Made by a program: the position numbers and the translations under genes. A DNA stretch of 64,000 bases. Source: Agrobacterium vitis (GTDB taxonomy: Bacteria > Pseudomonadota > Alphaproteobacteria > Rhizobiales > Rhizobiaceae). The DNA is taken from NCBI RefSeq assembly GCF_037039395.1, contig NZ_CP146244.1:682001-746000 (forward strand), read 5' to 3'. The stretch's first letter is position 1. Each line of letters starts with the position of its first letter. Shown here one piece after another: positions 35,264 to 51,060 of the stretch. The notes under the pieces are model-generated. The model saw only the letters and a program-made list of their open reading frames with translations. It made no database searches and had not been told where the DNA came from.

Positions 35264-36112
35264 TCATGCAACGGCCTTCAGCGACGTTCCATAGGTCACG
35301 CCCTTTTCCTTCAGCCATCGGCGGTAGGCGATGGAGGTTGCGTCAGCACGGGTGGGGATTTCCGAGCGTGGCTCCATCGGCAGCAGAACCGGGCGCTGGT
35401 TTTCAAGGATGATCCGGTCTTGCAGGAAAATCAGCTGCTGGAACTGGATCAGCGAGGCGGTGGTCGATTGATCGTCGATCAGATACATGATCGGATGGGC
35501 GCGGCAGCGATCCGGGTCCAGGGGTTGGACGAACAGGCAGATCACATCCCAGCGGCTGTCGGAATTTGGACAGGTCTTGTAGAGCAGCGTCGTGAACGGC
35601 GTCATCACCCGGTAGATATAATGGGTCATCAACCCGTCCGTGGCGGAAAGGGCGGCCTGCGGCTGGAAGAATTGGCAATTGGTCGCCCAGACCTCATCGA
35701 CGTCGCGGCGGATTTCCACATTATAGTGTTCGACTTCCGTATGCGGTTCGGAGCCGAGAATATCGGTATGGACGAAGGGAAAATGCGCCATGTCGAGAAA
35801 GTTTTCGACAATCCGCAGGCCCGATGCCTTCACGGTGACCGCGCCGCAGGGAACGATGCGGCGATCCGGTTCATCGGCTTCCTCAATGGGGAAAAGCTCC
35901 TTGTCCGGGCTGCCGAGCGTCGTCCAGATATAGCCGTAGCGCCGCCGGATTGGCAGGTTGGTTTCCTGCGCCATCACGGTCACGTCACCGTCCTGGGTTC
36001 GGTTCACGGCAAGATCGGTACCCAGCAGCCGGTTTGCGGATGAACCATAGGGAATAAGCGTTTCGGTATCGATGGGATACCATTGATCGAGGCTTGTTTT
36101 GTCGATTGCCAT
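35264..36112 (-). CDS. Rieske-less non-heme-iron oxygenase catalytic subunit (NdmC-like), paralog 1
   Basis: A 282-residue protein from ATG 36112. It aligns with the alpha subunits of vanillate-demethylase-type Rieske oxygenases but is missing the part that carries CxH...CxxH: DWYPI-type N-terminus, RLLGTDLAVNRTQDG, then directly RRRYGYIWTTLGSP. The mononuclear iron site is intact: N104, D107, H110, H115 in ENFLDMAHFPFVH and D232 in FLQDRIILENQ. Such a protein must receive electrons from a separate Rieske protein, as NdmC does from NdmD; the candidate is at 41678. It lies between the importer permeases and guaD. Closely similar to 50194-51060. Confidence 0.88.
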   Translation of the reverse strand: MAIDKTSLDQWYPIDTETLIPYGSSANRLLGTDLAVNRTQDGDVTVMAQETNLPIRRRYGYIWTTLGSPDKELFPIEEADEPDRRIVPCGAVTVKASGLRIVENFLDMAHFPFVHTDILGSEPHTEVEHYNVEIRRDVDEVWATNCQFFQPQAALSATDGLMTHYIYRVMTPFTTLLYKTCPNSDSRWDVICLFVQPLDPDRCRAHPIMYLIDDQSTTASLIQFQQLIFLQDRIILENQRPVLLPMEPRSEIPTRADATSIAYRRWLKEKGVTYGTSLKAVA

Positions 36113-36138
36113 CACTGGGTTTCTCCCTGCATCCTTGG

Positions 36139-37074
36139 TCAACGAAGGCTGCGGTAATAGGGCAGGCCAAGGGCGGCGGGTGCCGCCATCAACCGGCGCA
36201 TGCGCTGCCAGGCGATCACAGGCACGATAATGAAGGCGATTGTTCCGGCATAGGGCAGCATGGATAGAAAGGCCGGAGCAATCGGCCAGCCGCGCGCCTG
36301 TCCGACGAAACCGAGTGCGGTGATGAAGCCGAATAGCAGGCCGGACAGAGCGGCTGGAATAGGCCGGTAGCCGGCAAAAATCACCAGCGCCACCGCAATC
36401 CAGCCGCGCCCCGCCACCACGCCATCCGACCAGGATGGTACGAAGGCGAGCACGAGATAGGCGCCTGCACCTGAAGCAAGCGCCGCGCCCGCGCAGACAT
36501 AGCCAAAGCGGATGCGATGGACCGGAATGCCCGCCGCATCGGCAGCCGCCGGATTTTCGCCAACGGCGCGCATATTGAGCCCGTGGCGGGTACGAAACAT
36601 CAGAAAGGACAGGCCAAGCGGCAGGATGATGTAGATCAGGTAGACGAGAATATTCTGGCTGAAAAAGGCCGGTCCGAGGATGGGGATCTCCGAGAGGATC
36701 GGCATCTTGACGCCCTGGAATGTCGCCGGGACCGGCATGCCGGAATAGGATTTACCAATCGTTTGGGCAAGGCCGGTGCCGATCAAGGTCAATGCCAGCC
36801 CGCAAAGCACCTGATTGGCCCTGATCGTCACAGTCGCCACCGCAAACACCATGCCGAACAAAGCGCCGACGGCAAGCGCCGCCAAAAAGCCGAGGATGGG
36901 AGAGGGAAAGGCGGTGACGGTGGCAACAGCGGTGATCGCTCCCATGGCGATCAGCCCTTCGACGCCGAGATTGACGACGCCGACCCGCTCCGCCAGCACT
37001 TCGCCCATGGCCGCCAGCGCCAGGACGCCGCCAGCCAGAAAGGCGGTGGTTAGAAGTCCGGTCAACAGTTCCAT
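36139..37074 (-). CDS. ABC transporter permease, BMP-family importer (YufQ/NupQ type)
   Basis: A 311-residue permease of the branched-chain-type group (BPD_transp_2), about 8-9 helices: AAMGEVLAERVGVVNLGVEG at the N-terminus is diagnostic for nucleoside/purine-type BMP importers, then LTLIGTGLAQTIGKSYSG and MRAVGENPAAADAAGI. It pairs with the permease encoded 11 bp upstream. Its stop abuts a TTG/ATG region of the oxygenase subunit gene. Role: purine base or nucleoside uptake. Confidence 0.9.
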   Translation of the reverse strand: MELLTGLLTTAFLAGGVLALAAMGEVLAERVGVVNLGVEGLIAMGAITAVATVTAFPSPILGFLAALAVGALFGMVFAVATVTIRANQVLCGLALTLIGTGLAQTIGKSYSGMPVPATFQGVKMPILSEIPILGPAFFSQNILVYLIYIILPLGLSFLMFRTRHGLNMRAVGENPAAADAAGIPVHRIRFGYVCAGAALASGAGAYLVLAFVPSWSDGVVAGRGWIAVALVIFAGYRPIPAALSGLLFGFITALGFVGQARGWPIAPAFLSMLPYAGTIAFIIVPVIAWQRMRRLMAAPAALGLPYYRSLR

Positions 37075-37085
37075 CGCGGGTCCTT

Positions 37086-38132
37086 TCAGGTCTTGTCGCG
37101 GACGATGCGGTAATGGGAAATCTCGTCGCCGATGGCTGTCAGGAAGAGGATGAGGCCGGTGATCGCCAGCACGGTCGAGGTCGTCAGCCCCTGCGTTTGC
37201 AAAATGATGCCCGAATTGAGGATGAAGGCCATCAGCGCCCCCGCAAGGATAACCCCAATACAGGACCCCCGCGCCAGCACCGCGACCATGATGCCGAGAT
37301 AGCCGTAATTGTTGGAAATGCCGCCTTGAAGACGATGCACTGTTCCGGTGACTTCCAACATGCCCGCCAGACCGGCAATTGCCCCCGATAGCAGCATGAC
37401 GGTGATCAGATGACGGCGGGCGGCAATGCCCGCATAGTTTCCGGCCTGCGGATTGGAGCCGATCAGCCGCACCTCATAACCCCAGCGGGTAAAGGCCAGT
37501 AGCGCCGCCATGGCCAGCGCGAGAAGCACGGCAATCGGCAGGCCCCAATGCACCAGACCCCAGAATTCCGGCATTTCAGCCTTGATGCGCGGAGTGGCCG
37601 AGTTGGCGACGCCGCCACGTTCGCGCCACGCATCCGTGGAGACATAGTAAACCATCAGGATGGCGACGAAATTGAGCAGCAGCGTGGTGATCAGCTCGTT
37701 GACATTGGCATAGGCACGGGCAAGGGCCGGAATGACGATCCACACGCTTCCGCCAAGCGCTCCGGCGAAAAACATCGCCACCAGGCTCCAGCCTTCCGGC
37801 AGTGGCACAAAAAGGCCAACGGCACTGGCGGCGAAGGCGCCTGCGTAAAACTGCCCCTCCGCACCAATATTCCAGGCACCGATCTGTTGCGCCACGGTGA
37901 CAGAAAGGCCGGTCAGGATCAGCGGAATAACCAGAAGGCCGAGATCTTCCAGGCCGAAACTGGAGCCGAGCGAGGACGAGACCACCTGAATGCCAAGGTT
38001 AACAGGGCTTTTCCCCGCAATGGCCAGAATGACGCCTGCGATCACTAAGGCCAGTGCAATGGCTGCTGCCCGTGCGCCCAGGGCAGCAGCTGGCGTGGCT
38101 GAAGGGAAGCGTTGCAGGCGAAGACTAGCCAT
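37086..38132 (-). CDS. ABC transporter permease, BMP-family importer (YufP/NupP type)
   Basis: A 348-residue permease with GAWNIGAEGQFYAGAFAAS, the conserved INxGAEGQ-type motif of this group, NELITTLLLNFVAILMVYY and LIGSNPQAGNYAGI. It overlaps the ATPase gene by 8 nt. Together with the neighbouring permease it forms the channel. Its N-terminal 20 residues are Arg/Ala rich and the first helix starts near residue 22. Confidence 0.9.
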   Translation of the reverse strand: MASLRLQRFPSATPAAALGARAAAIALALVIAGVILAIAGKSPVNLGIQVVSSSLGSSFGLEDLGLLVIPLILTGLSVTVAQQIGAWNIGAEGQFYAGAFAASAVGLFVPLPEGWSLVAMFFAGALGGSVWIVIPALARAYANVNELITTLLLNFVAILMVYYVSTDAWRERGGVANSATPRIKAEMPEFWGLVHWGLPIAVLLALAMAALLAFTRWGYEVRLIGSNPQAGNYAGIAARRHLITVMLLSGAIAGLAGMLEVTGTVHRLQGGISNNYGYLGIMVAVLARGSCIGVILAGALMAFILNSGIILQTQGLTTSTVLAITGLILFLTAIGDEISHYRIVRDKT

Positions 38133-39723
38133 GCTGCGTGCCTCCTGCTGCCAACTGACCCGGCTTCAGCTGTCGCCCGCCCATCATCAGGCCGATCTGT
38201 TCGATATCGGCGCTGTCATTCTCGACGATGCCCATGATCCGGCCTTCGTAAAGCACGGCGATGCGGTCGGAGAGGTTCAGCAATTCCTCGAGTTCCTCCG
38301 AGATCAGCAGGATACCGGCACCTGCATTGCGCAGGTCAACGATATAGCGCAGCATGGTATTGATCGCCCCGACATCCAGCCCACGGCTCGGATAGGCGGC
38401 GACCAGAATTTTCGTGGCGATCCGCATTTCGCGCCGCGCCACCAGTCTTTGCTGGTTGCCACCCGATAGATTGCGGATTGGCATGGCGAAATCCGGGATG
38501 GCGACCTCTGCGACGCTGGCGATGCTGCGGGCCAGCGCCTTGGCGGCGGAGGGGCGAAACAGTCCGCCAACAGTGACCGGCGGTTTGCCATATTCGCGCA
38601 TCACGGCATTGACGGTGATCGACAGCCCCGGTGCCAACCCGCTCTGCAACCGGTCTTCCGGGATATGGCCGATGCCGCGCCGCACGAAATCAGCGGCATT
38701 TGCGTGGCCAATCGCTTCGCCGTCGATTTCGATGGTGCCGGAGGCGACGGGCCGCGTGCCGGTCAGCACTTGCGACAGTTCACGCTGGCCATTGCCTGCC
38801 ACCCCGGCAATCCCAAGGATTTCGCCTGCGCGCAGATCAAGGGAAATATCGTGCAAGGCCTGGCGTCCGCTATCGTCCAGCGCCGTCACTGTGCTGACCC
38901 GCATGACAGGAGCAGACGATAGCGCGGCGGCACCTTGCGGGCGGCCCCGCATATCGGCCAGCACGATATCGCGCCCGACCATCAGCCGCGCCAGCTTGGC
39001 CGGGCTGCAATCGGCGGAAAGCTCGGTGCCGACCTTTTGCCCGCCGCGCAGGATCGTCACCCGGTCGGAAATTTCCAGCACTTCATCGAGCTTATGGGAG
39101 ATGAAGATCACCGCATTGCCGGTGGAGGCGAAATCGCGCAAGGCCTTGAACAGTTCACGCGCCTCAAGCGGTGTGAGGACGGCGGTCGGCTCATCAAGGA
39201 TCAGTACGCGGGCCTTGCGGGCGAGAACCCGCAGGATCTCCACCCGCTGCTGTTCGCCTGTCGAAAGCTCTGTTATCCGCGCCGAAGGCTTGACCTGGAG
39301 GTTGAATCTGGCCGCAAGCTCTGCCGTGCGCTCCTCCAGAACCGGGGCTGAGGCGCGCCGGGGCGTCTCGCTCCAGCCGAGATGAATGTTTTCCGCTACC
39401 GTGAAGGCATTCACCAGCTTGAAATGCTGATGGATCATGCCAATGCCAGCGGCAATTGCCTGCTGCGGTCCGGTAAATTGCCTTGCATAGCCGTCGATGA
39501 TGATCTCGCCCGCATCCGGCTGGTAAATGCCGGTCAGGATATTCATCAGCGTCGATTTACCGGCGCCGTTTTCACCCAGTAGCGCATGGATTTCACCGGG
39601 CATGACTTCAAGATCGACATCGCGATTGGCGATGACGCCGGGGAAATATTTGGCAATGCCTTTCAACTGGACGAGAGGGGCTGCCCCCGTCGGCACTGTA
39701 TATTTCGCAGGATGTTCATTCAT
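38125..39723 (-). CDS. ABC transporter ATP-binding protein with two ABC domains (YufO/NupO type)
   Basis: A 532-residue tandem ATPase. ATG 39723 (MNEHPAKYT) is chosen; a GTG at 39732 is possible. First domain: Walker A GENGAGKST, signature LSTGEQQRVEILRVL, Walker B LILDEPTAVLTP. Second domain: degenerate Walker A GVAGNGQREL and signature LSGGNQQRLVARREM. This asymmetric pair is standard for BMP and sugar (CUT2) importers. It energises the two permeases that follow in the operon. Confidence 0.93.
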   Translation of the reverse strand: MNEHPAKYTVPTGAAPLVQLKGIAKYFPGVIANRDVDLEVMPGEIHALLGENGAGKSTLMNILTGIYQPDAGEIIIDGYARQFTGPQQAIAAGIGMIHQHFKLVNAFTVAENIHLGWSETPRRASAPVLEERTAELAARFNLQVKPSARITELSTGEQQRVEILRVLARKARVLILDEPTAVLTPLEARELFKALRDFASTGNAVIFISHKLDEVLEISDRVTILRGGQKVGTELSADCSPAKLARLMVGRDIVLADMRGRPQGAAALSSAPVMRVSTVTALDDSGRQALHDISLDLRAGEILGIAGVAGNGQRELSQVLTGTRPVASGTIEIDGEAIGHANAADFVRRGIGHIPEDRLQSGLAPGLSITVNAVMREYGKPPVTVGGLFRPSAAKALARSIASVAEVAIPDFAMPIRNLSGGNQQRLVARREMRIATKILVAAYPSRGLDVGAINTMLRYIVDLRNAGAGILLISEELEELLNLSDRIAVLYEGRIMGIVENDSADIEQIGLMMGGRQLKPGQLAAGGTQHG

Positions 39724-39796
39724 TCTCGGCACACCGGCATGAGAGACTGCGAAGGGCCGGGCATCATCGCCCGGCCTCTATATTGCGTCGGGTGGT

Positions 39797-40909
39797 TTAA
39801 AGCCCCGTGACGCCTTCCACCGACCAATCCCAGTTATAAAGCTCCAGTTCGGTCATCTTCTGGCCCTTGGCCACCCGCACGGCGCCCTTGGCGTCCTTCA
39901 ATTCGCCGACAAATGGCGACCAGCCGCCGAGGATTTTCGTGCGTATATCGTCTGCCGCCTTGCCGACTTCGGCAGGAACCTTGGCGCCCCAGGTATCGCG
40001 GTCAACGCCTGCGCCCATCGCGAAGATGCTTTCCGAAGGCGACCATTCGCCTGCCAGCCGCTTGCGGACCTGATCGATATAGAACTCCTTGAAGTCGATA
40101 ATGATCGAAGACACGTAGGAATTGGGGCCATAGCGGCGGATATCTGTGTTCCACATCGCGGCCCAGACGCCGCGTTTTTCAGCAACCTGAAGATAGGCGG
40201 CCTCATCCATGATGCCGAACAGGAAGTCGCAGCCATTGTCGATCAGCGCTGTGCCCGCTTGGGCGGCGGCCTGCGGATCGAACCAGGAATTGATGGTGAT
40301 GGTCTGGCAGGTGGCATTGGGGTTGACGGTGCGCGCGCCCATCAGGAAGGCATTGGTCGAGGCATAGACCGAAGCAACCGGGAAGGAGGCAACGTAACCA
40401 AGCTTGCCGGTTTTCGACAAATGCCCGGCGGCGACGCCGACCACATAGGTCGGATACCAATGGGCCATGTAATACCAGCCGAGATTGTCCATCGTCACAT
40501 GGCCATTGCATTCCATGAAGGCGGTGTCCTTGGCGCGGCGCACCACGTCATGCAGGAAGTCGCCGGTCGAAGACGTGTCGAAGATCATGTTCGCGCCTTC
40601 CGACACGAATTGCCGATAGGTACGGGTGGCATCTGCCGAATAGGGAACGTTCTCGACCTCGAGGATCTTCTTCAGCTTGGGAAATTTTTCCTTGACGGCG
40701 AGAACGCCCTGATGATGCGACCAGGTCCAGCCTTCATCGGTCACCGGGCCGACATGGCCAAAGCCGATCACGGCGTCCTCTTCCTTCATGGCAGGCAGGG
40801 CACTCGCGGCTGCGGCAGAGCGCAACATGCCGGGCAGCGCCAGCGAGGCGCTACCGGCTGCTGCCATGTTGAGGAAACCGCGACGGGAAAGACTGCGCAG
40901 GTCGATCAT
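39797..40909 (-). CDS. BMP-family ABC transporter substrate-binding protein, Tat-exported
   Basis: A 370-residue BMP/PnrA-like binding protein. The N-terminus SRRGFLNMAAAGSASLALPG has a twin-arginine motif, so export is probably through Tat after cytosolic folding. VIGFGHVGPVTDEGWTWSHHQG, FDTSSTGDFLHDVV and CDFLFGIMDEAAYLQVAEKRG match the family, which binds nucleosides, purines or related solutes. It is first in the operon binding protein-ATPase-permease-permease-NdmC-like-guaD, which points to a purine base or methylpurine as ligand. Confidence 0.9.
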   Translation of the reverse strand: MIDLRSLSRRGFLNMAAAGSASLALPGMLRSAAAASALPAMKEEDAVIGFGHVGPVTDEGWTWSHHQGVLAVKEKFPKLKKILEVENVPYSADATRTYRQFVSEGANMIFDTSSTGDFLHDVVRRAKDTAFMECNGHVTMDNLGWYYMAHWYPTYVVGVAAGHLSKTGKLGYVASFPVASVYASTNAFLMGARTVNPNATCQTITINSWFDPQAAAQAGTALIDNGCDFLFGIMDEAAYLQVAEKRGVWAAMWNTDIRRYGPNSYVSSIIIDFKEFYIDQVRKRLAGEWSPSESIFAMGAGVDRDTWGAKVPAEVGKAADDIRTKILGGWSPFVGELKDAKGAVRVAKGQKMTELELYNWDWSVEGVTGL

Positions 40910-41337
40910 TGGAACCCCTTGTGTTTTTTGTTTGAACTATACCGGCTGGAAAGCGGTGATCCGCATTCGCCCGCAAAGCGCCGAAATTTCTAAGGCAACA
41001 ACCGTGCCAGACCGGAAAACCTTGGTGGAAGGCTCCGTATCCTCTTTCAGGATCAGAAGGCGCAGGGGCAAGCAACAGCCACATTTCGGTTCGCAAGGGA
41101 CCATCAATCCTCGCGCCTTACCTTCGTGAATGGCCTGCGTTTGCCGCCGGTAAACGAGCTTTTCAAATCAAAGATGTTTCGCATAGTCAGAAAAAATGGA
41201 TCGCTGGAATGCGTTAAAAGCAACAACTCGCTGAAAGAAAATGCTTGTAAGCCGCCATTCGCAAGGACTAGACTGGATAAAATTGAGGCATGCATAAAAA
41301 TTAATCTTATGCATGGGAAAAATCAATTGGAGGCCAA
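40910..41337. promoter_or_regulatory. Divergent control region of the two purine-type operons
   Basis: This 428-bp gap separates the minus-strand importer/guaD operon from the plus-strand Rieske/GST operon. It contains a perfect 9-bp dyad near the plus-strand gene (listed separately). On the minus strand it holds several small complementary segments (ATCC/GGAT around 41043-41058, CCTT/AAGG around 41016-41030) that could form a leader RNA. I do not recognise a known riboswitch in it. No protein-like frame is present apart from the short ORF at its end. Confidence 0.5.
41289..41315. promoter_or_regulatory. Perfect dyad CATGCATAA-N9-TTATGCATG, candidate operator
   Basis: Two perfect 9-bp arms with an AT-rich 9-bp spacer lie 22 bp before the first start codon of the Rieske/GST operon. 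The geometry (ATAA...TTAT around an AT-rich centre, T-N11-A type) suits a LysR-type regulator; the LysR gene at 45013 lies in the same direction downstream. Confidence 0.55.
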
Positions 41338-41627: not shown

Positions 41628-41677
41628 TGGGCTTGATCTTCTGAAAGGGGTGACCGGAACAATGAGGGATAGGCGCG

Positions 41678-42385
41678 ATGACCACTGAAGCAGGATGGAT
41701 GCCGGTGGCGCTGTCAACGGCGATTGAACCGGGAACGTCGGCTGGCGCTGTTGTCGATGGCGCTGAAATCGTCATTTGGCGCGATGTCAGGGGGCTGGTG
41801 CATGTATGGGAAGACCGCTGTCCGCATCGCGGCATGCGCATGAGTTTCGGTTTCGTGCGCGGCGATCACATCGCCTGTCTTTACCATGGCTGGTCCTATG
41901 ACGCGGGCGGTCAATGCACCCATATCCCGGCCCATCCCGATCTCGACGTGCCAAAGACCATCAAGATCGCCAGCTACGCGGTGCAGGAACGCAATGGCGT
42001 GATCTGGACGGCGCTTGCCGACAGCGCCACTCCTGAGGCTATCCCCGATCTCGGCCTTACCCTGGCAGTTCGCAGCCTTTATGTGGATTGCACGCCGCAA
42101 AGGGCCATGGACGGCTTGATGGTGGCGCATCTGCCGGTTGGGAAAGGCTTGGAGGCTGCGCGGTTCGAGGTGCTTGCCAGCAATGTCTGGCGGCTGGAGG
42201 CGGGTGATCTTCATCTCGCCATCGCGGTGCAGCGCATCGCCCCGCAAAAGATCGGTCTGCATATCGTCACGGATGAACGGTCGGTGACATCCCGGCCAGC
42301 ACTTGCCCGTTGGGCGCAAGCATTGCGCCTTTCGCTTGAAACGCCGATTGGTCTTGAAGCATCCGGGCTGGGAAAGGTGGCCTGA
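41678..42385 (+). CDS. Stand-alone Rieske [2Fe-2S] protein of split oxygenase (NdmD-Rieske-like)
   Basis: A 235-residue protein. Residues about 10-120 are a Rieske domain with both cluster motifs: C48-P-H50-RG and C67-L-Y-H70-GW, then GGQCTHIPAHPDLD, typical of oxygenase-type (not bc1) Rieske domains. The remaining 110 residues look like the shrunken remnant of an alpha-subunit catalytic domain but have no NxxD...H...H iron site. It would hold the electron-transfer cluster for the Rieske-less subunits at 35264 and 50194. Its stop overlaps the GST start (TGATG). No reductase domain is fused, unlike NdmD. Confidence 0.88.
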   Translation: MTTEAGWMPVALSTAIEPGTSAGAVVDGAEIVIWRDVRGLVHVWEDRCPHRGMRMSFGFVRGDHIACLYHGWSYDAGGQCTHIPAHPDLDVPKTIKIASYAVQERNGVIWTALADSATPEAIPDLGLTLAVRSLYVDCTPQRAMDGLMVAHLPVGKGLEAARFEVLASNVWRLEAGDLHLAIAVQRIAPQKIGLHIVTDERSVTSRPALARWAQALRLSLETPIGLEASGLGKVA

Positions 42386-43017
42386 TGTCGAAGATCACGC
42401 TCTATAATTACGATCTGGACGAAAACTGTTACCGGGTGCGGCTGCTGCTCTCCTGTCTTGGCGTGGCCTATGAAACCCTTGCGATCGATATGGTGCCGGG
42501 CCGGGAGGAACAGTCCCCGGCGATGCTGGCGCTCAATCCGCTGGGGGAGCTTCCGGTGCTGAGGGATGGCGAACAGGTGCTTTATGGCACGCAGGCCATT
42601 CTCACCCATCTGGCCAGGGCCCATGACCCCTCCGGCACGTGGCTGCCGCTCGATCCAGCGGTCTTTGGCGGCATCATGCAATGGACCTTGTTTTCAGCCG
42701 CGCCGCTTGGCTGTGCTGTCATAGCCCGGCGGGTGGCGCTGTTTGGCGGGCCGGGTGATGTTGAGGCGTTGAAAGCGTCATCCCGCGCTGCCTTCCGGAT
42801 CATGGACGACCACATGACGCTGCGCCAATTCGATGGCTGCGAATGGTTTGCCGGGGCAGGCCCGACCATTGCCGATCTCGCCCTGTTTCCAAGCTTCGCA
42901 CTCAGCCGGGATTACGGCATTGATCACGATGAATTTCCGGCGCTTCGGCGTTGGATAAGGCGGTTTCGCAGCATCCCCGGTTTCCGGACCATGCCGGGCA
43001 TACCTGATTACCACTGA
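42385..43017 (+). CDS. Glutathione S-transferase-family protein (NdmE-like position)
   Basis: A 210-residue GST: N-terminal thioredoxin-like domain (ITLYNYDLDENCYRVRLLLSCL, NPLGELPVLRDG with the cis-Pro, and YGTQAILTHLAR in place of the usual ESxAI), and a C-terminal helical domain (ADLALFPSF). Its ATG shares one base with the stop of the Rieske gene, so the two are coupled. In Pseudomonas putida CBB5, NdmE is a GST homolog needed to hold the NdmC-NdmD demethylase together; the gene order here suggests the same structural job. Ordinary glutathione transfer, for example to formaldehyde, remains possible. The palindromic element begins at its stop codon. Confidence 0.85.
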   Translation: MSKITLYNYDLDENCYRVRLLLSCLGVAYETLAIDMVPGREEQSPAMLALNPLGELPVLRDGEQVLYGTQAILTHLARAHDPSGTWLPLDPAVFGGIMQWTLFSAAPLGCAVIARRVALFGGPGDVEALKASSRAAFRIMDDHMTLRQFDGCEWFAGAGPTIADLALFPSFALSRDYGIDHDEFPALRRWIRRFRSIPGFRTMPGIPDYH

Positions 43018-43157: not shown

Positions 43158-43207
43158 GACGGCAGCACGCAAGCCGGATTTCACTATTCTGCCCATCAGA
43201 GGAGTTT

Positions 43208-45013
43208 ATGCCGATGGCTTTAACCCGATTTTCCGTTGCCCCGCTGGCGGGCATGACGCGGCGGCTGGCCGATGTGGCGTCTGGCCGCGCCGCGCCGGAT
43301 CTGGTGATCACCGGAGCCCGCGTTCTCTCGACCTATTCCGAGCGTATTTTGCCGGACAGGGAAATCTGGCTCACGGGCGGACGGATCGCCGCCGTCAAAC
43401 CGGCTGGCAGCTCGAAAGCCATGGGCGTTCCACGCTATGATGCGCAGGGCGGCATAATCGCGCCGGGTCTGGTCGATCCGCATATCCATATTGAATCCAG
43501 CATGGTCACAGCCTGTGCCTATGCCGAGGCCGCCCTTCTCAACGGTACGACAACGATCTTCTGCGATAGCCACGAGATCGGCAATGTGATGGATGTGGCC
43601 GGCGTCGAGGCGATGCTGGAAGACGCCCGCCATGCGCCGCTATCGATTTTCCTCACTGTTCCCTCCACCGTGCCTGCGACCTCACCGGAGCTGGAAACGG
43701 CAGGAGGGGATCTGACAGCGGAGAAGATCGCCGCCCTGTTCGACACATGGCCGGAAGCGGTGGCGCTGGGCGAAAAGATGGATTTCGTCCCCGTCACCAT
43801 GGGAGATGAGCGCGCTCATGCCATTCTGGCCGCAGCGCTTGGCCGGGGGCGTCCGGTTTCCGGCCATGTCTATGGCCGTGAATTTGTCTCGGCCTATGCC
43901 GCATCCGGCGTCACAGACACGCATGAAGCCATCGACCGCGACATTGCCGATGATCTGCTGGAGGCGGGGATCTGGCTGTTCCTGCGCGGCGGCCCGCCAA
44001 CCACGCCCTGGCATTCCCTGCCGGAGGCGATCCGCACGGTGACGGAGCTTGGCGCTTCGCATAAGCGCATCGCTGTGTGCACCGACGACCGCGATGCAGA
44101 GGACCTGCTGGCCTTCGGTCTCGATTGGGTGGTGCGCGAGGCAAAGCGCGCGGGCATGAGCCGGGAGCAGGCCTGGGCCATGGGCTCGCTGCATGGCGCG
44201 ACGCGGTTTGCCATGGACGGGGAGATCGGCGGGTTGGGTGGCGGTCGCCGGGCCGATCTGGTGCTTCTGAATGACGACCTTGAGCCGGTCAGCACCTGGT
44301 ATGGCGGCGAATTGGTGGTTGACCACAAAAAGATTACTCCGGTTCTCGATGCCGCTCTTTCCAGCCGCTGGCGCTATCCCGATGCCGCTTATCACACAGT
44401 CAAACTGCCTGACGTGGTGAAGCTGACGCCGGATCTGCCGAGTAGTAAAGTCATCGCCAATACGATCCGCACCGAATTGCCGGGTATCATCCTCGGACAC
44501 GAGAAGATCGAGCTGGAACCGGCCAATGACTGGGAAACGCATTTTGCCCGCCACGGCCTGTGCTTCGTGACGGTAATCGAGCGGCATGGCAAATCGCCGG
44601 GCAATGTGGCGCATGCGCTTCTTTCCAATTTCGCGCTGAAAAGCGGTGCCGTTGCTTCTTCTATCGGTCATGACAGCCACAACATCATCATCGCCGGTAC
44701 CAATGAGGCCGATATGCAGGTGGCATTGCGCGCCATTGAATCCCATCAGGGCGGGGTCTGTGTGGTGCAGGATGGCAAGGTGACGGCCATGGTGCCGCTG
44801 CCGGTGGCGGGCCTGATGTCCGACAAGCGGGTGCATGAAGTGGCAGCCGAAGTCCAGGCGCTGAAAGTGGAGTGGGAAAAGGCAGGCTGCACCATTCCCT
44901 ATATGGGCTTCAACCTCATCCCACTGTCGGTGATCCCGGAAATCCGCATTACCGACAAGGGGCTGGTGACGGTGCCGCAAATGGTGATCGTGCCACCCTT
45001 CGAGGCGGCGTGA
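43208..45013 (+). CDS. ade: Adenine deaminase
   Basis: A 601-residue AdeC-type enzyme with GAGGAG before ATG 43208. Metal motifs: [48 protein letters not shown]-terminal domain with [20 protein letters not shown]. It converts adenine to hypoxanthine. It lies downstream of the palindromic element, and its stop overlaps the LysR start (TGATG). With guaD and the xanthine-dehydrogenase-type enzyme this covers both purine bases. Confidence 0.94.
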
Positions 45014-45963
45014 TGGATGCCTACCGGCTGGGCCTGGTTGCAACGCGCATCCATTATTTCCAGCTGGTGGCGCGGCTGGGCTCGATCCGCCAGGCAGCCC
45101 TTGCCCTCAATGTTGCGCCCTCTTCGGTCAGCCGCATCCTGCGCCAATTGGAAGAGGAAATCGGCACGCCGCTGTTTGATCGGGTGCGCCAGCGCCTGAA
45201 ACTGACCAGCGCCGGTGAATTGCTGCTGTATCACGCCAAGGCGTCGCTGTCGGAACTCAGCCGGGCCTGCGCTGAAATCAACGATCTGCACGGGCTGCAT
45301 CGAGGCACCGTCTCGGTGGCTGTGGTGGAAAGCGTGGCGCGAGGCCTGTTGCCAGCGGCGCTGGAGGCATTCTGGAGCCGGCATCCGGCCATTACCGTCG
45401 ATATCAAGGTCATGGCTTCGCAGCAGGCAGCCAATGCCGTGGCCGAGGGCGAATGCGATCTTGCGGTTATTTTCGACGTGCGCGTGCCGCGCACCGTGCG
45501 CCGCATTGCCAGCGTCTCGCTGCCAATCGGCGTTCTGGCTCTGCCGGATAGCGATATGGCCAAGCGCACGGAAATCAAGCTGTTCGATCTCGCCAACCTG
45601 AGGGTGATCCTCTCGGATGCCAGCTTGACGCTGGGCGCTTCGGTAGAGGAGGCGTTGAACCGCTCGCTGGTGGATCTCTCGCACCGCTCGCGCACCAATT
45701 CCATCGGCCTGATGGTGGAATTGGCCAGGCGCAATCTCGGCCTTGTCTTGCAGACCCGGGTCGGCGTGGAGCAGGAGCTGGCCGAGGGTTCGCTGGTCTT
45801 CGTGCCGCTTTCCGACAGCCGCTTGCCGAACCGCAAGCTGATGCTGCTATCGCGCTCGGCCAAGGAGATGTCGGATGCGGCCTCGGCGCTGGGTCGGCTG
45901 CTGGAGCAATCGGTCGAGCAACTCGCGCAGGCGGCAGCACAAGTGCCGCGAGACCTACCATAA
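45013..45963 (+). CDS. LysR-family transcriptional regulator
   Basis: A 316-residue regulator from ATG 45013, which overlaps the ade stop. HTH: RIHYFQLVARLGSIRQAALAL, SSVSRILRQLEEEIGTPLFD. Effector domain: GLLPAALEAFWSRHPAITVDI and NAVAEGECDLAVIFDV. The HTH resembles that of the LysR gene at 25644. Given its place, it is the best candidate regulator of the divergent purine-type operons and of the genes that follow at 46058. The dyad at 41289 is a possible site. Confidence 0.92.
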   Translation: MDAYRLGLVATRIHYFQLVARLGSIRQAALALNVAPSSVSRILRQLEEEIGTPLFDRVRQRLKLTSAGELLLYHAKASLSELSRACAEINDLHGLHRGTVSVAVVESVARGLLPAALEAFWSRHPAITVDIKVMASQQAANAVAEGECDLAVIFDVRVPRTVRRIASVSLPIGVLALPDSDMAKRTEIKLFDLANLRVILSDASLTLGASVEEALNRSLVDLSHRSRTNSIGLMVELARRNLGLVLQTRVGVEQELAEGSLVFVPLSDSRLPNRKLMLLSRSAKEMSDAASALGRLLEQSVEQLAQAAAQVPRDLP

Positions 45964-46057: not shown

Positions 46058-46558
46058 ATGAAACCATCATCCGTCGATGCCGTTATCCGCGGCCTCAAGA
46101 AAGCCGGGGTCAGTGTCGTTTGCTACCTGCCTGACTCGCTGTTCAAAGAACTGTATCCGGCACTCGATGCCGATCCTGATATCCGCACTATTCGCGTCAC
46201 CAATGAGGGCGAGGGGGCGGCAATCTGTGGCGGTGTGTTTCTGTCCGGCAAGCGGGCGGCGCTGGTCATGGAAAATTCCGGCCTGCGGGCTTCCGTTGAA
46301 CCGTTGGCTCGCATGGGGCTGGGGGCCGGTATTCCGGTCGTCATGCTGATGAGCTATCGCGGCGAACTGGGTGAAAACAACTGGTGGGCCATTCCCCACG
46401 GCATCACCATGGAGCCGGTGCTGAACGCGCTGCGCATTCCCTACCGGGTGGTGCGCGAGGAAGACGAAATCGAGCAGTCGATCTTGGATGCCTATAATTG
46501 GTCCTACAATGCCTACTACCACTCGGCCATCGCCCTTGGCGGGAGCATCGTCCGATGA
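46058..46558 (+). CDS. TPP-dependent decarboxylase alpha subunit (sulfopyruvate/phosphonopyruvate decarboxylase-like)
   Basis: A 166-residue PYR-domain protein: GVSVVCYLPDSLFKELY at the start, TNEGEGAAICGGVFLSGK with the conserved cofactor-activating Glu, and MENSGLRASVEPLARM. Length and motifs match ComD-type alpha subunits, which pair with a separate PP-domain subunit. GAGGGA precedes the ATG. It decarboxylates a 2-oxo acid to an aldehyde; the alcohol- and aldehyde-oxidising genes downstream agree with an aldehyde intermediate. The substrate is not known. Confidence 0.88.
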   Translation: MKPSSVDAVIRGLKKAGVSVVCYLPDSLFKELYPALDADPDIRTIRVTNEGEGAAICGGVFLSGKRAALVMENSGLRASVEPLARMGLGAGIPVVMLMSYRGELGENNWWAIPHGITMEPVLNALRIPYRVVREEDEIEQSILDAYNWSYNAYYHSAIALGGSIVR

Positions 46559-47163
46559 AGCGCTATGATTGCATGAAGCTGCTGGCCGCGCGGCTGGAAA
46601 ACGAGCTTGTTATCCTCTCGCTCGGTGCCTCCGTCGATGAATGGTATAACGCCGCCCCGCATATGCGCCAGGCCAGCCTGTTCCAGCAGCAGCTTGGCTG
46701 TGTCACGCCGCAGGCCTTCGGGCTGGCTGCTGGGCTGCCACATCGCCGGATCATTTCGCTCGATACCGATGGCGGCATGATGTTCAACCTCGGTATTCTC
46801 GCCACCCTTGGCAATGAACAACCGAAAAACCTGTTCATCGTCGTCTGGGACAATGAGTGCTACCAGTCGATTGGTGGGCCGCCGACCCACACGGCTTTCG
46901 GGCGGGTGGATATTGCCGCCATTGCCCGTGGCGCCGGGATCGATAATGCCTTTACCGCCCGCACGCTGGAAGAATTCGATTCCCATTGCGAGGCGGGCCT
47001 GAAGGCGGATGTTCCCTATGTGGTGGTTGCCAAGGTGGCAGGCACTGTGCAGCCGGACATCAAGCGCAAGCATTCGGATGGGCGCGAGGACAAATATATC
47101 TTCGTGCGCCATGTCGAGGCCTCGGAAGGCATCGTCATCATGGGACCGAGCGAGCACAATTGA
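46555..47163 (+). CDS. TPP-dependent decarboxylase beta subunit (PP domain)
   Basis: A 202-residue PP-domain protein from ATG 46555, overlapping the alpha gene by 4 nt. The magnesium/TPP motif is TDGGMMFNLGILATLGN followed by NLFIVVWDNECYQSIGGPP with the conserved Asn. LSLGASVDEWYNAAPHMRQA resembles ComE. It forms the active site at the interface with the alpha subunit. The C-terminal tail (about 20 residues) is charged. Confidence 0.9.
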   Translation: MKRYDCMKLLAARLENELVILSLGASVDEWYNAAPHMRQASLFQQQLGCVTPQAFGLAAGLPHRRIISLDTDGGMMFNLGILATLGNEQPKNLFIVVWDNECYQSIGGPPTHTAFGRVDIAAIARGAGIDNAFTARTLEEFDSHCEAGLKADVPYVVVAKVAGTVQPDIKRKHSDGREDKYIFVRHVEASEGIVIMGPSEHN

Positions 47164-47176
47164 GGCCGATGTCCCC

Positions 47177-48757
47177 ATGTCCAATACGACGACTGTAGCC
47201 CGGCCCCTCTTGCCACAACGCCCGCTCCTGAAGGCCTATGACTATATCGTCGTCGGCGCGGGCTCCGGCGGCTTGCCGGTGGTGCGTCGCCTGATCGATG
47301 GCACGGATGCGACCGTGTTGCTGGTCGAGGCGGGCGAACCGGGGATCGGCGTGACCGAGATTGACGACCCGCGTCAATGGGTGCCGTTGGGGCGCGGGCG
47401 GTGGGATTGGGGTTATGATTATGCGCCCACATCCCGCGTCAACGGCCATACGATTGGTATTCCGCGTGGCAAAGTGCTGGGCGGCTCTTCGGCAATCAAT
47501 GCGATGATGTGGTATCGCGGCCATCCCAGTGACTATGACGCCTGGCAGGCCGCTGGCTGCGAGGGCTGGTCGTTTGAGGATGTGCTGCCATTCTTCAAAA
47601 AGGCCGAGGATTGGGAAGGCGGCGAAAGCCGCTGGCGCGGTGCTGGCGGTCCCCTGAAGATCACGACCAGCAAGGCCCTTCATCCGGTGGCCCGGGCGAT
47701 GATGGAGGGTGCTGCCGATCTCGGTATGCCCGTGATCGACGATCCAAACGGGCCAAGCAATGAGGGCGCCTGCCCCTCGAATTTCAATATTGTCGATGGC
47801 AAGCGCTGGAGTTCGGCTGAGGGCTATCTCTATCCGATCCTTGATCATCCGCGTCTGACTGTGCTGACCGGCTCACAGGTTATCGGCCTGATGGTCGAAA
47901 AGGGGCGTTGCACGGGCATTCGCCATCTGGTGGACGGCAAGACAGTTGAGACCCTTGTCCAAAGCCAGGTAGTGCTGGCGGCGGGGGCTTTCGATACGCC
48001 GCGTCTGCTTGTCCTGTCGGGCATTGGCGATCCCGAGGCGTTGAAACGGCTGGGCATTCCACTCATCCACGCCCTTCCTGGCGTCGGACGCAATCTTCAG
48101 GATCACCCTTTGGTACAGGCCGTGGTCTGCCGGTCGAAAATGCCGCTGGGCGATGTGTTCGACAATGGCGGTGGCACCATGATGAACTGGAAATCATCGG
48201 CCCATCTCGGCCAACCGGATGTGCATGCCTTTCCCGTGCAGGGCAATAGCGCTACGCCTGCGCTGCGCGCTCTTTACGACATGTCCGGCCCGGTGTTTTC
48301 GATGGGGGCGGGCTTGATGCGCTCAAGAAGCATCGGATACCTGCGTCTGCTGTCTGCCGACCCTCTTGGCCCGCTGGAGATCCAGCCGAATTATTTCGCG
48401 GAGCCTGCCGATCTGGATGCGACGCTTCTGGCCGTCGAGACGGTGATGGCGCTGGCGCAGACATCGGCTTTTGCCGGGCTGTTCGATGGCTTTGCCGCGC
48501 CGGACGCAAAACTTTCGAGGGCCGGGCTTCGGGATTTCATCCGCAACGGCTGTTCCACTTTCTTTCATCCCGTCGGCACGGCCAAGATGGGCAGTGACGA
48601 CATGGCGGTGGTGGATAGCCGTTTGCGGGTGCATGGCCTTGCCGGGCTGACGATTGCTGATGCCTCGGTGATCCCCATCATTCCGACCTGCAACACCCAT
48701 GCGCCGGTGACGATGATTGGTGAGCGTGCCGCCACCTTCCTGATGCAGGCGGCGTGA
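47177..48757 (+). CDS. GMC-family FAD oxidoreductase (choline-dehydrogenase-like)
   Basis: A 526-residue flavoprotein from ATG 47177. FAD motif YIVVGAGSGGLPVVRRL, GMC signatures GKVLGGSSAINAMMWYRG and AAGAFDTPRLLVLSGIG, and the active-site region FFHPVGTAKMG (His) with ITPTCNTHAP-type end (PIIPTCNTHAPVTMIGE, Asn/His). It oxidises a primary alcohol to an aldehyde. It follows the TPP decarboxylase genes by 13 bp and precedes an amidohydrolase. An aldehyde dehydrogenase at 54717 could take the product further. Confidence 0.9.
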   Translation: MSNTTTVARPLLPQRPLLKAYDYIVVGAGSGGLPVVRRLIDGTDATVLLVEAGEPGIGVTEIDDPRQWVPLGRGRWDWGYDYAPTSRVNGHTIGIPRGKVLGGSSAINAMMWYRGHPSDYDAWQAAGCEGWSFEDVLPFFKKAEDWEGGESRWRGAGGPLKITTSKALHPVARAMMEGAADLGMPVIDDPNGPSNEGACPSNFNIVDGKRWSSAEGYLYPILDHPRLTVLTGSQVIGLMVEKGRCTGIRHLVDGKTVETLVQSQVVLAAGAFDTPRLLVLSGIGDPEALKRLGIPLIHALPGVGRNLQDHPLVQAVVCRSKMPLGDVFDNGGGTMMNWKSSAHLGQPDVHAFPVQGNSATPALRALYDMSGPVFSMGAGLMRSRSIGYLRLLSADPLGPLEIQPNYFAEPADLDATLLAVETVMALAQTSAFAGLFDGFAAPDAKLSRAGLRDFIRNGCSTFFHPVGTAKMGSDDMAVVDSRLRVHGLAGLTIADASVIPIIPTCNTHAPVTMIGERAATFLMQAA

Positions 48758-48802
48758 AATTTGCATGCCCTGAAGGGCGGAAGGAAGACCCTGGAGATGA
48801 GC

Positions 48803-50197
48803 ATGACTTCGAGCGCAATGATCGTCACCGCGGACACTCTGTTGACCATGGATGCGAAAAACAGCGTCATCCCCGATGGCGCGGTCGCCATCGAGGACGG
48901 TCGTATCCTGGCGGTCGGTGCGCTGGAGATGGTGAAGGCCAGTCATCCGGCTTTGGCGGTCAAGAGGATAGACAATGCACTGCTGATGCCGGGGCTGATC
49001 AACGCCCATGCGCATTCCGGCTTCCTGCGCGGCACGGCGGAACATCTGCCGGTCTGGGATTGGCTGACCATCCATATCAACCCGATGCACCGCGTGCTTC
49101 TGCCGCATGAAGCCGAGGCGGCGTCATTTCTGTGCTATGCCGAATCCGCGCTGTCCGGCACCACGACTGTTGTCGATATGTGGCGCTATATGGATGGCAG
49201 TGCCCGGGCCGCACAGTCCATCGGCATGCGCCTTGTTGCTGTACCCTATGTCGGGGAGCACCCCGATTACAATTATTTCGAAACGCTCGACAATAACGAG
49301 GCGATGATTGAGACCTGGCACCGCAAGGCGGGGGGCCGCATCAATGTCTGGGTCGGGCTGGAACATCTGTTTTATGCTGATGCGGCTGGCCAGCAGCGTG
49401 CCATCTCCATGGCCAAACAGTATAACACCGGCTTTCACACCCATTGTTCGGAAGCGGAAGTCGAGGTTGGCGGTTTTCTCGACACCTATGGCAAACGCCC
49501 CATGCATGTTCTGGAAGATCTCGGCTTCTTCGAGGCTCCACGCACCATGCTGGCCCATGCTGTCTGGCTGGACGAGGCGGAAATCGAGCTGATTGCCAGA
49601 TACAATGTCTCTGTTGCCCATAATCCGGTGTCGAACATGAAGCTCGCCTCCGGCATCGCACCGATTGCCGATATGCTGGCGGCTGGCATTCCGGTCGGTC
49701 TTGGCACGGATGGCGAAAAGGAAAACAACAATTTCGACATGTTCGAGGAGATGAAGACCGCCTCCCTGCTCGGCAAACTGCGCCACCGCGATGCCGCCGC
49801 CATGGATAGCTGGCAATGCCTGCGCATGGCGACCATTCTCGGCGCCAAGGCCATCGGCCTTGAGGATGAAATCGGCTCTATCGAGGTGGGGAAACGCGCC
49901 GATATCATTGCCGTGCGCACCAATACGCCGCGTATGACGCCGCTGTTTGCCGAGGGTCCCTATTTCAATGTGCAGCACAATCTCGTCCATGCGGTGCGCG
50001 GCGGCGATGTCGCCATGACCATGGTGGATGGTCAGGTGATCGTGGAAGATGGCGTGCTGAAAACCGGCGACGTCAAGGCGATCATTGCCGATATCCATGG
50101 CATGGCGCCTGCACATTTTGCCCGCCGCGCCGCATGGCTTGCCGAAAATGGCGGCGGCACCAAGCAATGGATCAGCGAAGCGGAGGGTGTCAAATGA
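48803..50197 (+). CDS. Amidohydrolase of the TRZ/ATZ (SAH/8-oxoguanine-deaminase-like) group
   Basis: A 464-residue enzyme. ATG 48803 has GGAG at a good distance; ATG 48797 is also possible. Motifs: MPGLINAHAHSGFLRG, VGLEHLFYAD, GFHTHCSEAEVEVGG (catalytic His-x-x-Glu), MLAHAVWL, HNPVSNMKL and GLGTDGEKENNNFDMFEEM. This pattern is shared by SAH/MTA deaminases, 8-oxoguanine deaminase and triazine hydrolases. It removes an amino or similar group from an N-heterocycle. Its stop overlaps the second Rieske-less subunit by 4 nt, linking the two reactions. Confidence 0.87.
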   Translation: MTSSAMIVTADTLLTMDAKNSVIPDGAVAIEDGRILAVGALEMVKASHPALAVKRIDNALLMPGLINAHAHSGFLRGTAEHLPVWDWLTIHINPMHRVLLPHEAEAASFLCYAESALSGTTTVVDMWRYMDGSARAAQSIGMRLVAVPYVGEHPDYNYFETLDNNEAMIETWHRKAGGRINVWVGLEHLFYADAAGQQRAISMAKQYNTGFHTHCSEAEVEVGGFLDTYGKRPMHVLEDLGFFEAPRTMLAHAVWLDEAEIELIARYNVSVAHNPVSNMKLASGIAPIADMLAAGIPVGLGTDGEKENNNFDMFEEMKTASLLGKLRHRDAAAMDSWQCLRMATILGAKAIGLEDEIGSIEVGKRADIIAVRTNTPRMTPLFAEGPYFNVQHNLVHAVRGGDVAMTMVDGQVIVEDGVLKTGDVKAIIADIHGMAPAHFARRAAWLAENGGGTKQWISEAEGVK

Positions 50198-51060
50198 AGA
50201 CGACCGACCAGGTCGCGCTTGACGATTGGTATGCTATCGCCACTGCCGGGGATGTCACGACGCAGCCGGTGAGAACAAGGCTGCTGGGCCAGGAGATCGA
50301 ATATCGGCTGGACGCGACTGGTGCGCTGCTGGTGCGCGAGATTGGTACGGACGGCTGCTATGGACCGGCCCTACCGTTCCAGGTGAAATACGGTTGCCTG
50401 TTTACCACGCTTGGCACACCGGGAAAGGACATTGTCGATATCGCCGAAGCAGAAGAGGCGGATCGCCGGTTCGTGCTGTGCGGTTGGGTGACAATGCGAG
50501 CATCGGGCCTGCGCGTTGTCGAAAATTTCCTCGATATGGCGCATTTTCCTTTCGTGCATACCGATATTCTCGGGTCTGAGCCGCATACCGAAGTGCCACA
50601 CTATCTGTCGGAAATTCGCCGCGATGTGGATGAGGTCTGGGCGACCAATTGCACGTTTTTCCAGCCGCGCATTGCTGCGACCGAGAGCGATGGGGACTTC
50701 GTGCACCTGACCTACCGGGTGCCATCGCCCTTCGTGGTGATGCTCTACCGGGTCTGTCCCACATCGCCTGACAGGCTCGATGCGATTGCCCTGTTCATCC
50801 AGCCGATGGAAGAGGGGCTTTGCCGCGCCCAGCCAGTGATGTATCTGGTCGATACCGTCTCGCCGCATAAGGCACTCCTCAATTTCGAGCAGGTGATTTT
50901 CCTTCAGGACCGGATCATCGTTGAAAACCAGCGCCCCTTGCTGCTGTCGCTTGAGCCGCGCGCTGAAATCCCGACAAGGGCCGATTCCTCCTCCATTGCC
51001 TATCGCCGCTGGCTGAAGGAAAAAGGCCTCCGCTTCGGCACGACCGCAGGAGCCGGATGA
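50194..51060 (+). CDS. Rieske-less non-heme-iron oxygenase catalytic subunit (NdmC-like), paralog 2
   Basis: A 288-residue protein, closely similar to 35264-36112 in its central and C-terminal parts. The iron site is N111, D114, H117, H122 in ENFLDMAHFPFVH, with the later FLQDRIIVENQ Asp. The Rieske CxH...CxxH segment is absent: EYRLDATG is followed soon by VKYGCLFTTLGTP. The N-terminal 60 residues differ from paralog 1, so the two could prefer different substrates. 4-nt overlaps with the amidohydrolase before and the molybdenum subunit after place it within one operon. Confidence 0.88.
   Translation: MKTTDQVALDDWYAIATAGDVTTQPVRTRLLGQEIEYRLDATGALLVREIGTDGCYGPALPFQVKYGCLFTTLGTPGKDIVDIAEAEEADRRFVLCGWVTMRASGLRVVENFLDMAHFPFVHTDILGSEPHTEVPHYLSEIRRDVDEVWATNCTFFQPRIAATESDGDFVHLTYRVPSPFVVMLYRVCPTSPDRLDAIALFIQPMEEGLCRAQPVMYLVDTVSPHKALLNFEQVIFLQDRIIVENQRPLLLSLEPRAEIPTRADSSSIAYRRWLKEKGLRFGTTAGAG

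What the first reader, a model, noticed from the sequence alone, without database searches (positions are those of the whole stretch)
35264..51060. A Rieske oxygenase split into separate Rieske, catalytic and GST-like genes in a purine-type locus, resembling NdmCDE
The sequence shows two paralogous proteins (35264-36112, 50194-51060) with an intact mononuclear iron site (ENFLDMAHFPFVH and a later QD) but with the CxH...CxxH cluster segment cut out. A separate protein (41678-42385) has both Rieske motifs but no iron site. A GST-fold gene (42385-43017) is fused to it by overlapping stop and start. Established knowledge: the N7-demethylase of Pseudomonas putida CBB5 is built from Rieske-less NdmC, Rieske-bearing NdmD and GST-like NdmE. 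Guanine deaminase, adenine deaminase, a BMP-type importer and an XDH-type enzyme are in the same cluster. Inference: a demethylase for N-methylpurines (7-methylxanthine, 7-methylguanine) organised differently from NdmCDE, with a stand-alone Rieske protein.
Basis: partly seen in the sequence, partly recalled or inferred. Interest (0 to 1): 0.92.

Follow-up and report, generated by a model that had tools for sequence, protein, structure and literature searches.

The report
Oxygenase split into two half-dead subunits
A purine-breakdown gene cluster in a rhizobium-type bacterium encodes an oxygenase whose two metal centres sit on two separate, complementary half-degenerate proteins, a rearranged cousin of the caffeine-pathway enzyme NdmCDE, probably used to strip groups such as methyls from modified purines.

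Summary
Two paralogues (35264-36112 -, 50194-51060 +) keep the mononuclear-iron ligands and lack the Rieske ligands; a stand-alone protein (41678-42385) is the reverse; a GST-like gene overlaps it by one base. They match NdmC (46% and 43% identity to M1EY73), the N-terminal module of NdmD homologues (hhalign E 4e-39, 219 columns) and the GSTs beside them. New here: the 'Rieske protein' is modelled as a whole oxygenase alpha subunit with a shrunken catalytic domain, so the halves look like complementary degenerate copies of one ancestor. In trees each half is one clade beside the same BMP-importer-linked full oxygenases; reductase-fused NdmD forms are one nested clade. The stand-alone layout occurs in 79 of 80 related loci, none with an NdmD-type reductase in the stretch held, and this genome shows none by the search used. 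Guanine deaminase, a PucD-type XDH, a BMP-type importer and, farther off, xanthine riboswitches support a purine role. N-dealkylation of a methylpurine is the best guess, unproven. New variant of a known kind.

The parts
35264..36112 (-). cat1: Rieske-less catalytic subunit (NdmC homologue, 282 aa; bridging Asp107, His110, His115, Asp232)
   Evidence: AF2 model, fold match
50194..51060 (+). cat2: paralogous Rieske-less catalytic subunit (288 aa, 57% identical to cat1)
41678..42385 (+). RSK: stand-alone Rieske pseudo-alpha subunit (235 aa; Rieske ligands intact, C-terminal half modelled as a shrunken catalytic domain without iron ligands)
42385..43017 (+). GST-like protein (NdmE-type, 210 aa; 37-46% identical to GSTs beside NdmC/NdmD homologues)
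33880..35271 (-). guanine deaminase (TTG at 35271 overlaps cat1; an ATG a little downstream may be the true start)
   Evidence: TIGR02967 405 bits, over cut-off; junction
36139..37074 (-). importer permease 2
   Evidence: assigned by position and by reading the sequence, no family search
37086..38132 (-). importer permease 1
   Evidence: assigned by position and by reading the sequence, no family search
38125..39732 (-). importer ATPase (ABC)
39797..40909 (-). BMP-type substrate-binding protein (nearest solved chains: atrazine periplasmic binding protein 6pi5, and 3s99)
43208..45013 (+). adenine deaminase family protein (below the equivalog cut-off)
45014..45963 (+). LysR-type regulator (start uncertain; ORF 44872-45963)
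   Evidence: family assigned by reading the sequence, no family search
46058..46558 (+). ThDP decarboxylase alpha subunit (sulfopyruvate-decarboxylase-like, below the cut-off)
46498..47163 (+). ThDP decarboxylase beta subunit (true start uncertain)
47009..48757 (+). GMC oxidoreductase (true start uncertain)
48761..50197 (+). amidohydrolase of the Trz/Atz and MTA/SAH-deaminase type; overlaps cat2
51057..54233 (+). xanthine-dehydrogenase-type protein, PucC-like FAD part fused to PucD-like Mo part; overlaps cat2
54230..54715 (+). [2Fe-2S] subunit of the XDH-type enzyme
21742..21791 (+). xanthine (NMT1) riboswitch before an NMT1/tauA-type ABC transporter (part of the purine setting, not in front of the oxygenase genes)
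   Evidence: Rfam RF03054 43.1 bits; Pfam
24578..24622 (+). second xanthine (NMT1) riboswitch before a 2OG-Fe(II) oxygenase gene (likewise)
   Evidence: Rfam RF03054 40.4 bits; Pfam

Best explanation
This is a multi-part Rieske oxygenase of the NdmCDE kind in which the parts of one alpha subunit are divided between two genes. cat1 (and cat2) keep the mononuclear iron and substrate pocket but have lost the cluster-binding part of the Rieske domain; RSK keeps the Rieske cluster but its catalytic domain has shrunk and lost the iron ligands. Mechanism proposed (inferred): RSK docks its cluster against the iron site of cat across the interface marked by the conserved bridging Asp, as neighbouring alpha subunits do in ordinary C3 oxygenases; the NdmE-like GST holds the pair together; electrons reach RSK not from a fused NdmD-type reductase but from an unlinked, probably general, ferredoxin or reductase; the enzyme then hydroxylates an N-methyl (or other N-alkyl) group of an imported modified purine so that it leaves as an aldehyde, giving a base for guanine deaminase, then xanthine and XDH. 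Most likely substrates for cat1: 7-methylguanine or 7-methylxanthine. Shown by computation: homology of the three parts, complementary metal sites, conserved gene layout, no NdmD-type reductase found, purine context. Inferred: complex formation, electron donor, reaction and substrate.
Against: No substrate or activity evidence. RSK's C-terminal half shows no sequence match to the catalytic domain: hhalign of the two families aligned only 41 N-terminal columns, at 6.6% probability; the pseudo-catalytic domain rests on the predicted fold. The cat1 model is weak around the iron (pLDDT under 50 at 113-121 and 231-255). Complex formation was not modelled. 21 of 80 loci show no BMP importer and 31 of 80 no guanine deaminase within the stretch held. 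None of 12 loci of relatives scanned had a xanthine riboswitch, and the window's two are 9 kb or more from these genes. 35 of 36 cluster-bearing genomes have some reductase homologue, 20 of them at over 150 bits, so a reductase shared with another oxygenase cannot be excluded there. The full oxygenases in the trees came from a search with the catalytic profile, which may favour those near cat. No formaldehyde-handling gene was searched for. The genuine NdmD and NdmE of strain CBB5 were not in hand; homologues stood in for them.
Confidence: 0.6

Rival explanations
1. The split oxygenase hydroxylates the purine ring itself (for example xanthine or hypoxanthine to urate, as HpxDE does) rather than removing an N-alkyl group.
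For: HpxD-type oxygenases are relatives of both halves (a protein annotated HpxD: cat1 29% over 251 aa, RSK 39% over 120 aa). HpxDE oxidises hypoxanthine and xanthine (PMC7373994, passages). Guanine deaminase would supply xanthine.
Against: The closest characterised relative found for the catalytic part is NdmC, 46%. The cluster already holds a PucD-type XDH for that step, and XDH-like genes also lie near 3 of the 4 full-oxygenase relatives examined over 20 kb (L140-L142, not L147).
Confidence: 0.18
2. The enzyme, at least with cat2, acts on another bicyclic heterocycle such as a pterin: GMC and aldehyde dehydrogenases oxidise a side chain, amidohydrolases open the pyrimidine ring, the two-subunit ThDP enzyme decarboxylates the remaining pyrazine, and XDH and the oxygenase finish it.
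For: The lumichrome pathway uses the same classes: pyrimidine-ring hydrolysis, two-subunit ThDP heterocycle decarboxylase LumK/LumL, xanthine-oxidase-like LumJ, Rieske dioxygenase (PMC12746152, passages).
Against: LumK/LumL were not compared by sequence; the paper's Rieske enzyme is an ordinary alpha-beta type. cat1 sits with guanine deaminase instead. The paper does not mention pterins or purines; the pterin idea is inference only.
Confidence: 0.2
3. RSK is only an electron carrier: a ferredoxin with an irrelevant C-terminal extension that also serves other oxygenases.
For: Family search sees only a Rieske domain. Some sources call relatives 'nitrite reductase/ring-hydroxylating ferredoxin subunit'.
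Against: The C-terminal half is conserved into NdmD-type proteins, is modelled with block means of 90 or more over residues 111-220 and fits the catalytic fold; RSK is found beside cat1 in 79 of 80 loci.
Confidence: 0.12

Closest known systems
NdmCDE, N7-demethylase of Pseudomonas putida CBB5
   Same: Rieske-less catalytic subunit, Rieske module carried on another protein, GST-like third protein; parts homologous (NdmC compared directly, NdmD and NdmE through homologues).
   Different: Rieske module is stand-alone, not fused to a reductase; no full oxygenase of NdmA/NdmB kind in the window; two catalytic paralogues; no NdmD-type reductase found in the genome; clustered with guanine deaminase, BMP importer and XDH.
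ndmCDE-like locus of Sinorhizobium meliloti pSymA (L091)
   Same: BMP importer, two catalytic paralogues, GST and XDH genes close by.
   Different: There the Rieske module is fused to a reductase (588 aa).
Rhizobium johnstonii pRlX3 locus (L092)
   Same: Stand-alone Rieske protein, Rieske-less catalytic protein, GST, amidohydrolase and BMP importer; no reductase annotated in the 25-kb stretch.
   Different: One catalytic gene, the oxygenase, deaminase and importer genes on one strand; deaminase nearest to 8-oxoguanine deaminase but below its cut-off; 57% (cat1) and 45% over 132 aa (Rieske) identical.
HpxDE (xanthine/hypoxanthine oxidation)
   Same: Related oxygenase family in purine breakdown.
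   Different: Ordinary two-domain alpha subunit with a separate reductase gene (L094).
SxtT/GxtA and NdmA/NdmB (solved structures)
   Same: SxtT/GxtA are nearest by sequence to both halves; NdmA/NdmB are among the nearest by sequence and fold.
   Different: Both metal sites on one chain.

Membership tests
NdmCDE-type N7-demethylase | Catalytic subunit without Rieske cluster ligands but with 2-His-1-Asp iron site, homologous to NdmC | tested here: met
   46% and 43% identity to M1EY73; ligand counts; in one clade with it, SH-aLRT 99
NdmCDE-type N7-demethylase | Rieske cluster carried at the N-terminus of a flavin/NADH/[2Fe-2S] reductase (NdmD) | tested here: not met
   RSK is 235 aa and hits Rieske families only; no NdmD-type reductase found in the genome (best 48 bits)
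NdmCDE-type N7-demethylase | GST-like NdmE | tested here: met
   37-46% identity to GSTs beside NdmC/NdmD homologues; NdmE of CBB5 itself was not compared
NdmCDE-type N7-demethylase | N7-demethylation of 7-methylxanthine with formaldehyde release | not testable with these tools
   needs purified protein or a mutant
Rieske non-heme iron oxygenase (alpha subunit) | Rieske cluster and mononuclear iron on one chain | tested here: not met
   ligand sets are divided between two chains
Rieske non-heme iron oxygenase (alpha subunit) | Two-domain alpha fold | tested here: met
HpxDE xanthine hydroxylase | Full-length HpxD with adjacent HpxE reductase | tested here: not met
   RSK is the only Rieske-domain match in the window's stretch of the genome and no reductase match falls there
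Rieske ferredoxin | Short single-domain carrier | tested here: not met
   a second, confidently modelled domain follows

The most novel reading that the evidence does not exclude
An oxygenase alpha subunit was duplicated and the two copies lost opposite metal sites, leaving an obligate pair of pseudo-subunits that together make one active site per interface. The stand-alone pair, fed by general cellular electron carriers, is the older and wider state; the celebrated NdmD reductase of caffeine degraders is a later single fusion of one half to a reductase. In this genome one Rieske half serves two catalytic halves with different substrates.
Probability: 0.45. Interest if true: 0.78.

Novelty: new variant of a known kind. 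Interest (0 to 1): 0.62.

Why it matters
A 2025 review (PMC12445004, passages seen) describes structurally characterised Rieske oxygenases as consistently C3-symmetric, with a Rieske domain and a catalytic domain on each alpha subunit. [quoted passage not shown] the structure of that complex was still called unsolved in 2026 (PMC13237722, passages). This locus offers a widespread simpler form in which catalytic half, electron half and GST are three small genes, so subunit geometry, the role of the GST and the electron donor can be tested one gene at a time.

Tried and rejected
Bare ferredoxin reading of RSK: set aside because the C-terminal half is shared with NdmD-type proteins and fits the catalytic fold. 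Sequence proof that this half derives from a catalytic domain: tried by profile comparison with the catalytic family and not obtained.

Reductase hidden elsewhere in the genome: sought with PF00175, PF00970 and PF14759, then with the separate reductase of L130, because PF00970 did not match L130's reductase or the two fused NdmD-type proteins tested. Own genome best 48 bits. Of 36 cluster-bearing genomes (36 of the genomes of the 80 loci, chosen for spread), 20 have a match over 150 bits, 2 at 111-113, 13 at 41-76 and one, Kaistia terrae, none. Seven genomes were looked at for general donors (6 of those 36, plus G000): 7 of 7 have a PF00970 protein in an open frame of 275-298 aa and 7 of 7 a PF14759 protein, one of them with a TGA inside the match; these are candidate donors only.

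A second RSK in the genome: the five PF00355 matches are two frames of about 450 aa beside the BenC and GbcB-like reductases, RSK, and two that I read as a NirD-like short protein and a bc1-type Rieske protein (labels by reading). A stretch around the former was fetched and not analysed further.

Order of fusion: fused rows form one clade (99/97) but a single clade of stand-alone rows is not rejected (p-AU 0.409), so 'stand-alone is ancestral' rests on parsimony with unfused outgroups. Two rows, L126 and L127, were dropped from that tree for long branches. Locus-derived rows were selected by presence or absence of Rieske motifs, so the counts quoted as unfiltered are those. Riboswitches beside the oxygenase genes in relatives: none of the xanthine class in the 12 loci scanned.

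Papers: 10 searches listed no paper that I recognised as describing a stand-alone Rieske partner of NdmC or a degenerate catalytic domain in NdmD; only listings and passages were seen, the library lacks most subscription journals, and the primary NdmCDE paper (recalled: J Bacteriol 2013) was not held.
Full report
1. What is there. The four genes of the finding exist. cat1 (35264-36112) is on the minus strand, last but one in a run BMP-type binding protein, ATPase, two permeases, cat1, guanine deaminase; RSK (41678-42385) and the GST (42385-43017) start the divergent plus-strand run, followed by an adenine-deaminase family gene, a regulator, a two-subunit ThDP decarboxylase, a GMC oxidoreductase, an amidohydrolase, cat2 (50194-51060) and an XDH-type enzyme with its own [2Fe-2S] subunit (permeases and regulator named by reading). 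Stop and start overlap at RSK/GST, amidohydrolase/cat2, cat2/XDH and XDH/[2Fe-2S] subunit, and at cat1/guanine deaminase if its first TTG is used.

2. Identity of the parts. The genuine NdmC (UniRef M1EY73, 'Methylxanthine N7-demethylase') came up. cat1 is 46% and cat2 43% identical to it over nearly their whole length; three full oxygenases (HpxD- and NdmB-type) reach 24-28% over the catalytic region. The comparison cluster on a Klebsiella plasmid has an NdmB-like oxygenase (E 1.4e-186 to NdmB 6icl), an NdmC homologue, a 585-aa fused NdmD-type protein and a GST. RSK residues 2-223 match a profile of four NdmD-type N-terminal modules (three fused proteins and the Rieske-ferredoxin protein of L138) at E 4.4e-39. 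The GST is 37-46% identical to the GSTs of four such loci. Nearest solved structures by sequence are GxtA ('SxtDIOX') and SxtT, then NdmB and NdmA, for cat1; for RSK again GxtA and SxtT first, with NdmA and NdmB further down.

3. Complementary loss. In the alignment to GxtA, cat1 residue 46 onward picks up at GxtA residue 100, so the stretch that holds the cluster ligands is missing, while the flanking N-terminal scaffold remains: the only region that the RSK and cat profiles share by sequence is this scaffold (41 columns, 29% identity, low probability). RSK keeps the cluster ligands; its C-terminal half is predicted as strands and a long helix that align with the catalytic domain of oxygenases, with the iron ligands gone. 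Ligand counts on hits taken without a motif filter are 238/238 and 0/238 for cat, 115/115 and 0/115 for RSK. I read this as duplication of one alpha subunit followed by opposite losses; sequence similarity alone does not prove it for the RSK C-terminal half.

4. Relatives. RSK and GST lie divergent from cat1 in 79 of 80, the exception being a contig end (L051). 0 of 80 show an NdmD- or HpxE-type reductase as best match of any reading frame in the stretch held; 72 of the 80 stretches are about 20 kb, 8 are 8.7-15 kb. In 398 genomes drawn from the phylum (the window's own included), 44 matched the catalytic profile and 15 had a strong Rieske-less match (E under 1e-90); in 15 of these 15 a Rieske module is encoded nearby. 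Five of the 15 are reductase-fused (G051, G071, G095, G255, G321; in G051 and G071 the protein runs off the short locus), one is Rieske plus a plant-type ferredoxin domain with no flavin or NAD domain found (G322, 401 aa), and nine are stand-alone, one of which (G331) has a separate NdmD-type reductase gene in the same run.

5. Trees. In the catalytic-region tree 30 cat rows form one clade (99) and their sister is a set of 7 full oxygenases (93); each of the 7 has a BMP-type gene in its locus (L115-L121), and of the 4 examined over 20 kb (L140-L142, L147), 4 have a guanine-deaminase-like and 3 an XDH-like gene (best-match labels at 25-39% identity). In the Rieske-region tree RSK and NdmD-type modules form one clade (94/92), sister to the same seven, and reductase- or ferredoxin-fused forms are one nested clade (99/97). 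One change of state suffices. The direction is an inference. The full oxygenases were drawn from the hits and comparison loci, so other sister groups are untested.

6. Electron supply. The window's genome has three PF00970 proteins and one PF14759 protein; two of the former are a BenC and a GbcB-like protein within about 2 kb of their own oxygenases. In 20 of 36 cluster-bearing genomes better matches do exist (over 150 bits; 34-43% identical, one 72%), so supply by an unlinked reductase is possible there.

7. Setting. Two xanthine riboswitches lie at 21.7 and 24.6 kb, 9 kb or more from guanine deaminase and cat1, before an NMT1/tauA-type transporter and a 2OG-Fe(II) oxygenase; this class senses xanthine and urate and sits with such genes, dioxygenases and deaminases (PMC7373994, passages). 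The BMP-type binding protein's nearest solved relatives are the atrazine periplasmic binding protein and 3s99 (that such proteins take purine bases is recalled). As annotated, guanine deaminase plus XDH already carry guanine to urate, so the oxygenase would be most useful for a modification such as N-methyl; this is the argument for N-dealkylation over ring hydroxylation, and it is inference.

8. A swapped half. Against three Agrobacterium vitis loci (L006-L008) the flanks between 39.0 and 45.6 kb are mostly 88-98% identical in 200-base steps, but about 40.95-42.39 kb, the divergent control region plus RSK, falls to 56-82%. As proteins, cat1 is 96-97% and the GST 90-94% identical to theirs, RSK 69%. 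So sharp a local drop suggests replacement of RSK and its control region by recombination, and that a Rieske half can be exchanged while cat and GST stay; fast local divergence is the alternative.

9. Verdict. A real, conserved, rearranged relative of NdmCDE. It fails one defining feature of NdmCDE (Rieske on the reductase), so it should not be called NdmCDE, though it probably works like it. Novelty lies in the stand-alone degenerate alpha subunit, the absence of a dedicated reductase and the wide distribution.

Noticed in passing
window 40950-42390: Control region plus RSK are 56-82% identical to three A. vitis loci while the flanks are mostly 88-98%: looks like local replacement of the Rieske gene alone.
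   Followed up: partly
window 21742-21791 and 24578-24622: Two xanthine (NMT1) riboswitches ahead of an NMT1/tauA-type transporter and a 2OG-Fe(II) oxygenase.
   Followed up: partly
window 46058-47163: Two-subunit ThDP decarboxylase genes in one run with cat2, amidohydrolase and XDH; same enzyme classes as the lumichrome pathway (PMC12746152, passages).
   Followed up: partly
L138 9107-10309 (-): Rieske module on one chain with a plant-type ferredoxin domain, no flavin or NAD domain found between.
   Followed up: partly
L130 9051-12070: Stand-alone Rieske, catalytic, GST and a separate NdmD-type reductase gene in one run; a guanidine-II riboswitch lies at 4939-4987 of the same locus.
   Followed up: partly
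L089 12871-14626: The NdmD-type gene of plasmid pPp1290 is annotated as three pieces that match parts of the intact relative in L088; probably interrupted.
   Followed up: no
L115-L121; L140-L142, L147: Full-length oxygenases next to BMP-type importer genes, the nearest full relatives of both halves in the trees made here.
   Followed up: partly
L011, L015-L017, L019, L020 and 17 other loci: A further amidohydrolase lies between importer and cat1 in 23 of 80 loci; best match in my set is the R. johnstonii one (35-38% identity), itself nearest to 8-oxoguanine deaminase but below its cut-off.
   Followed up: no
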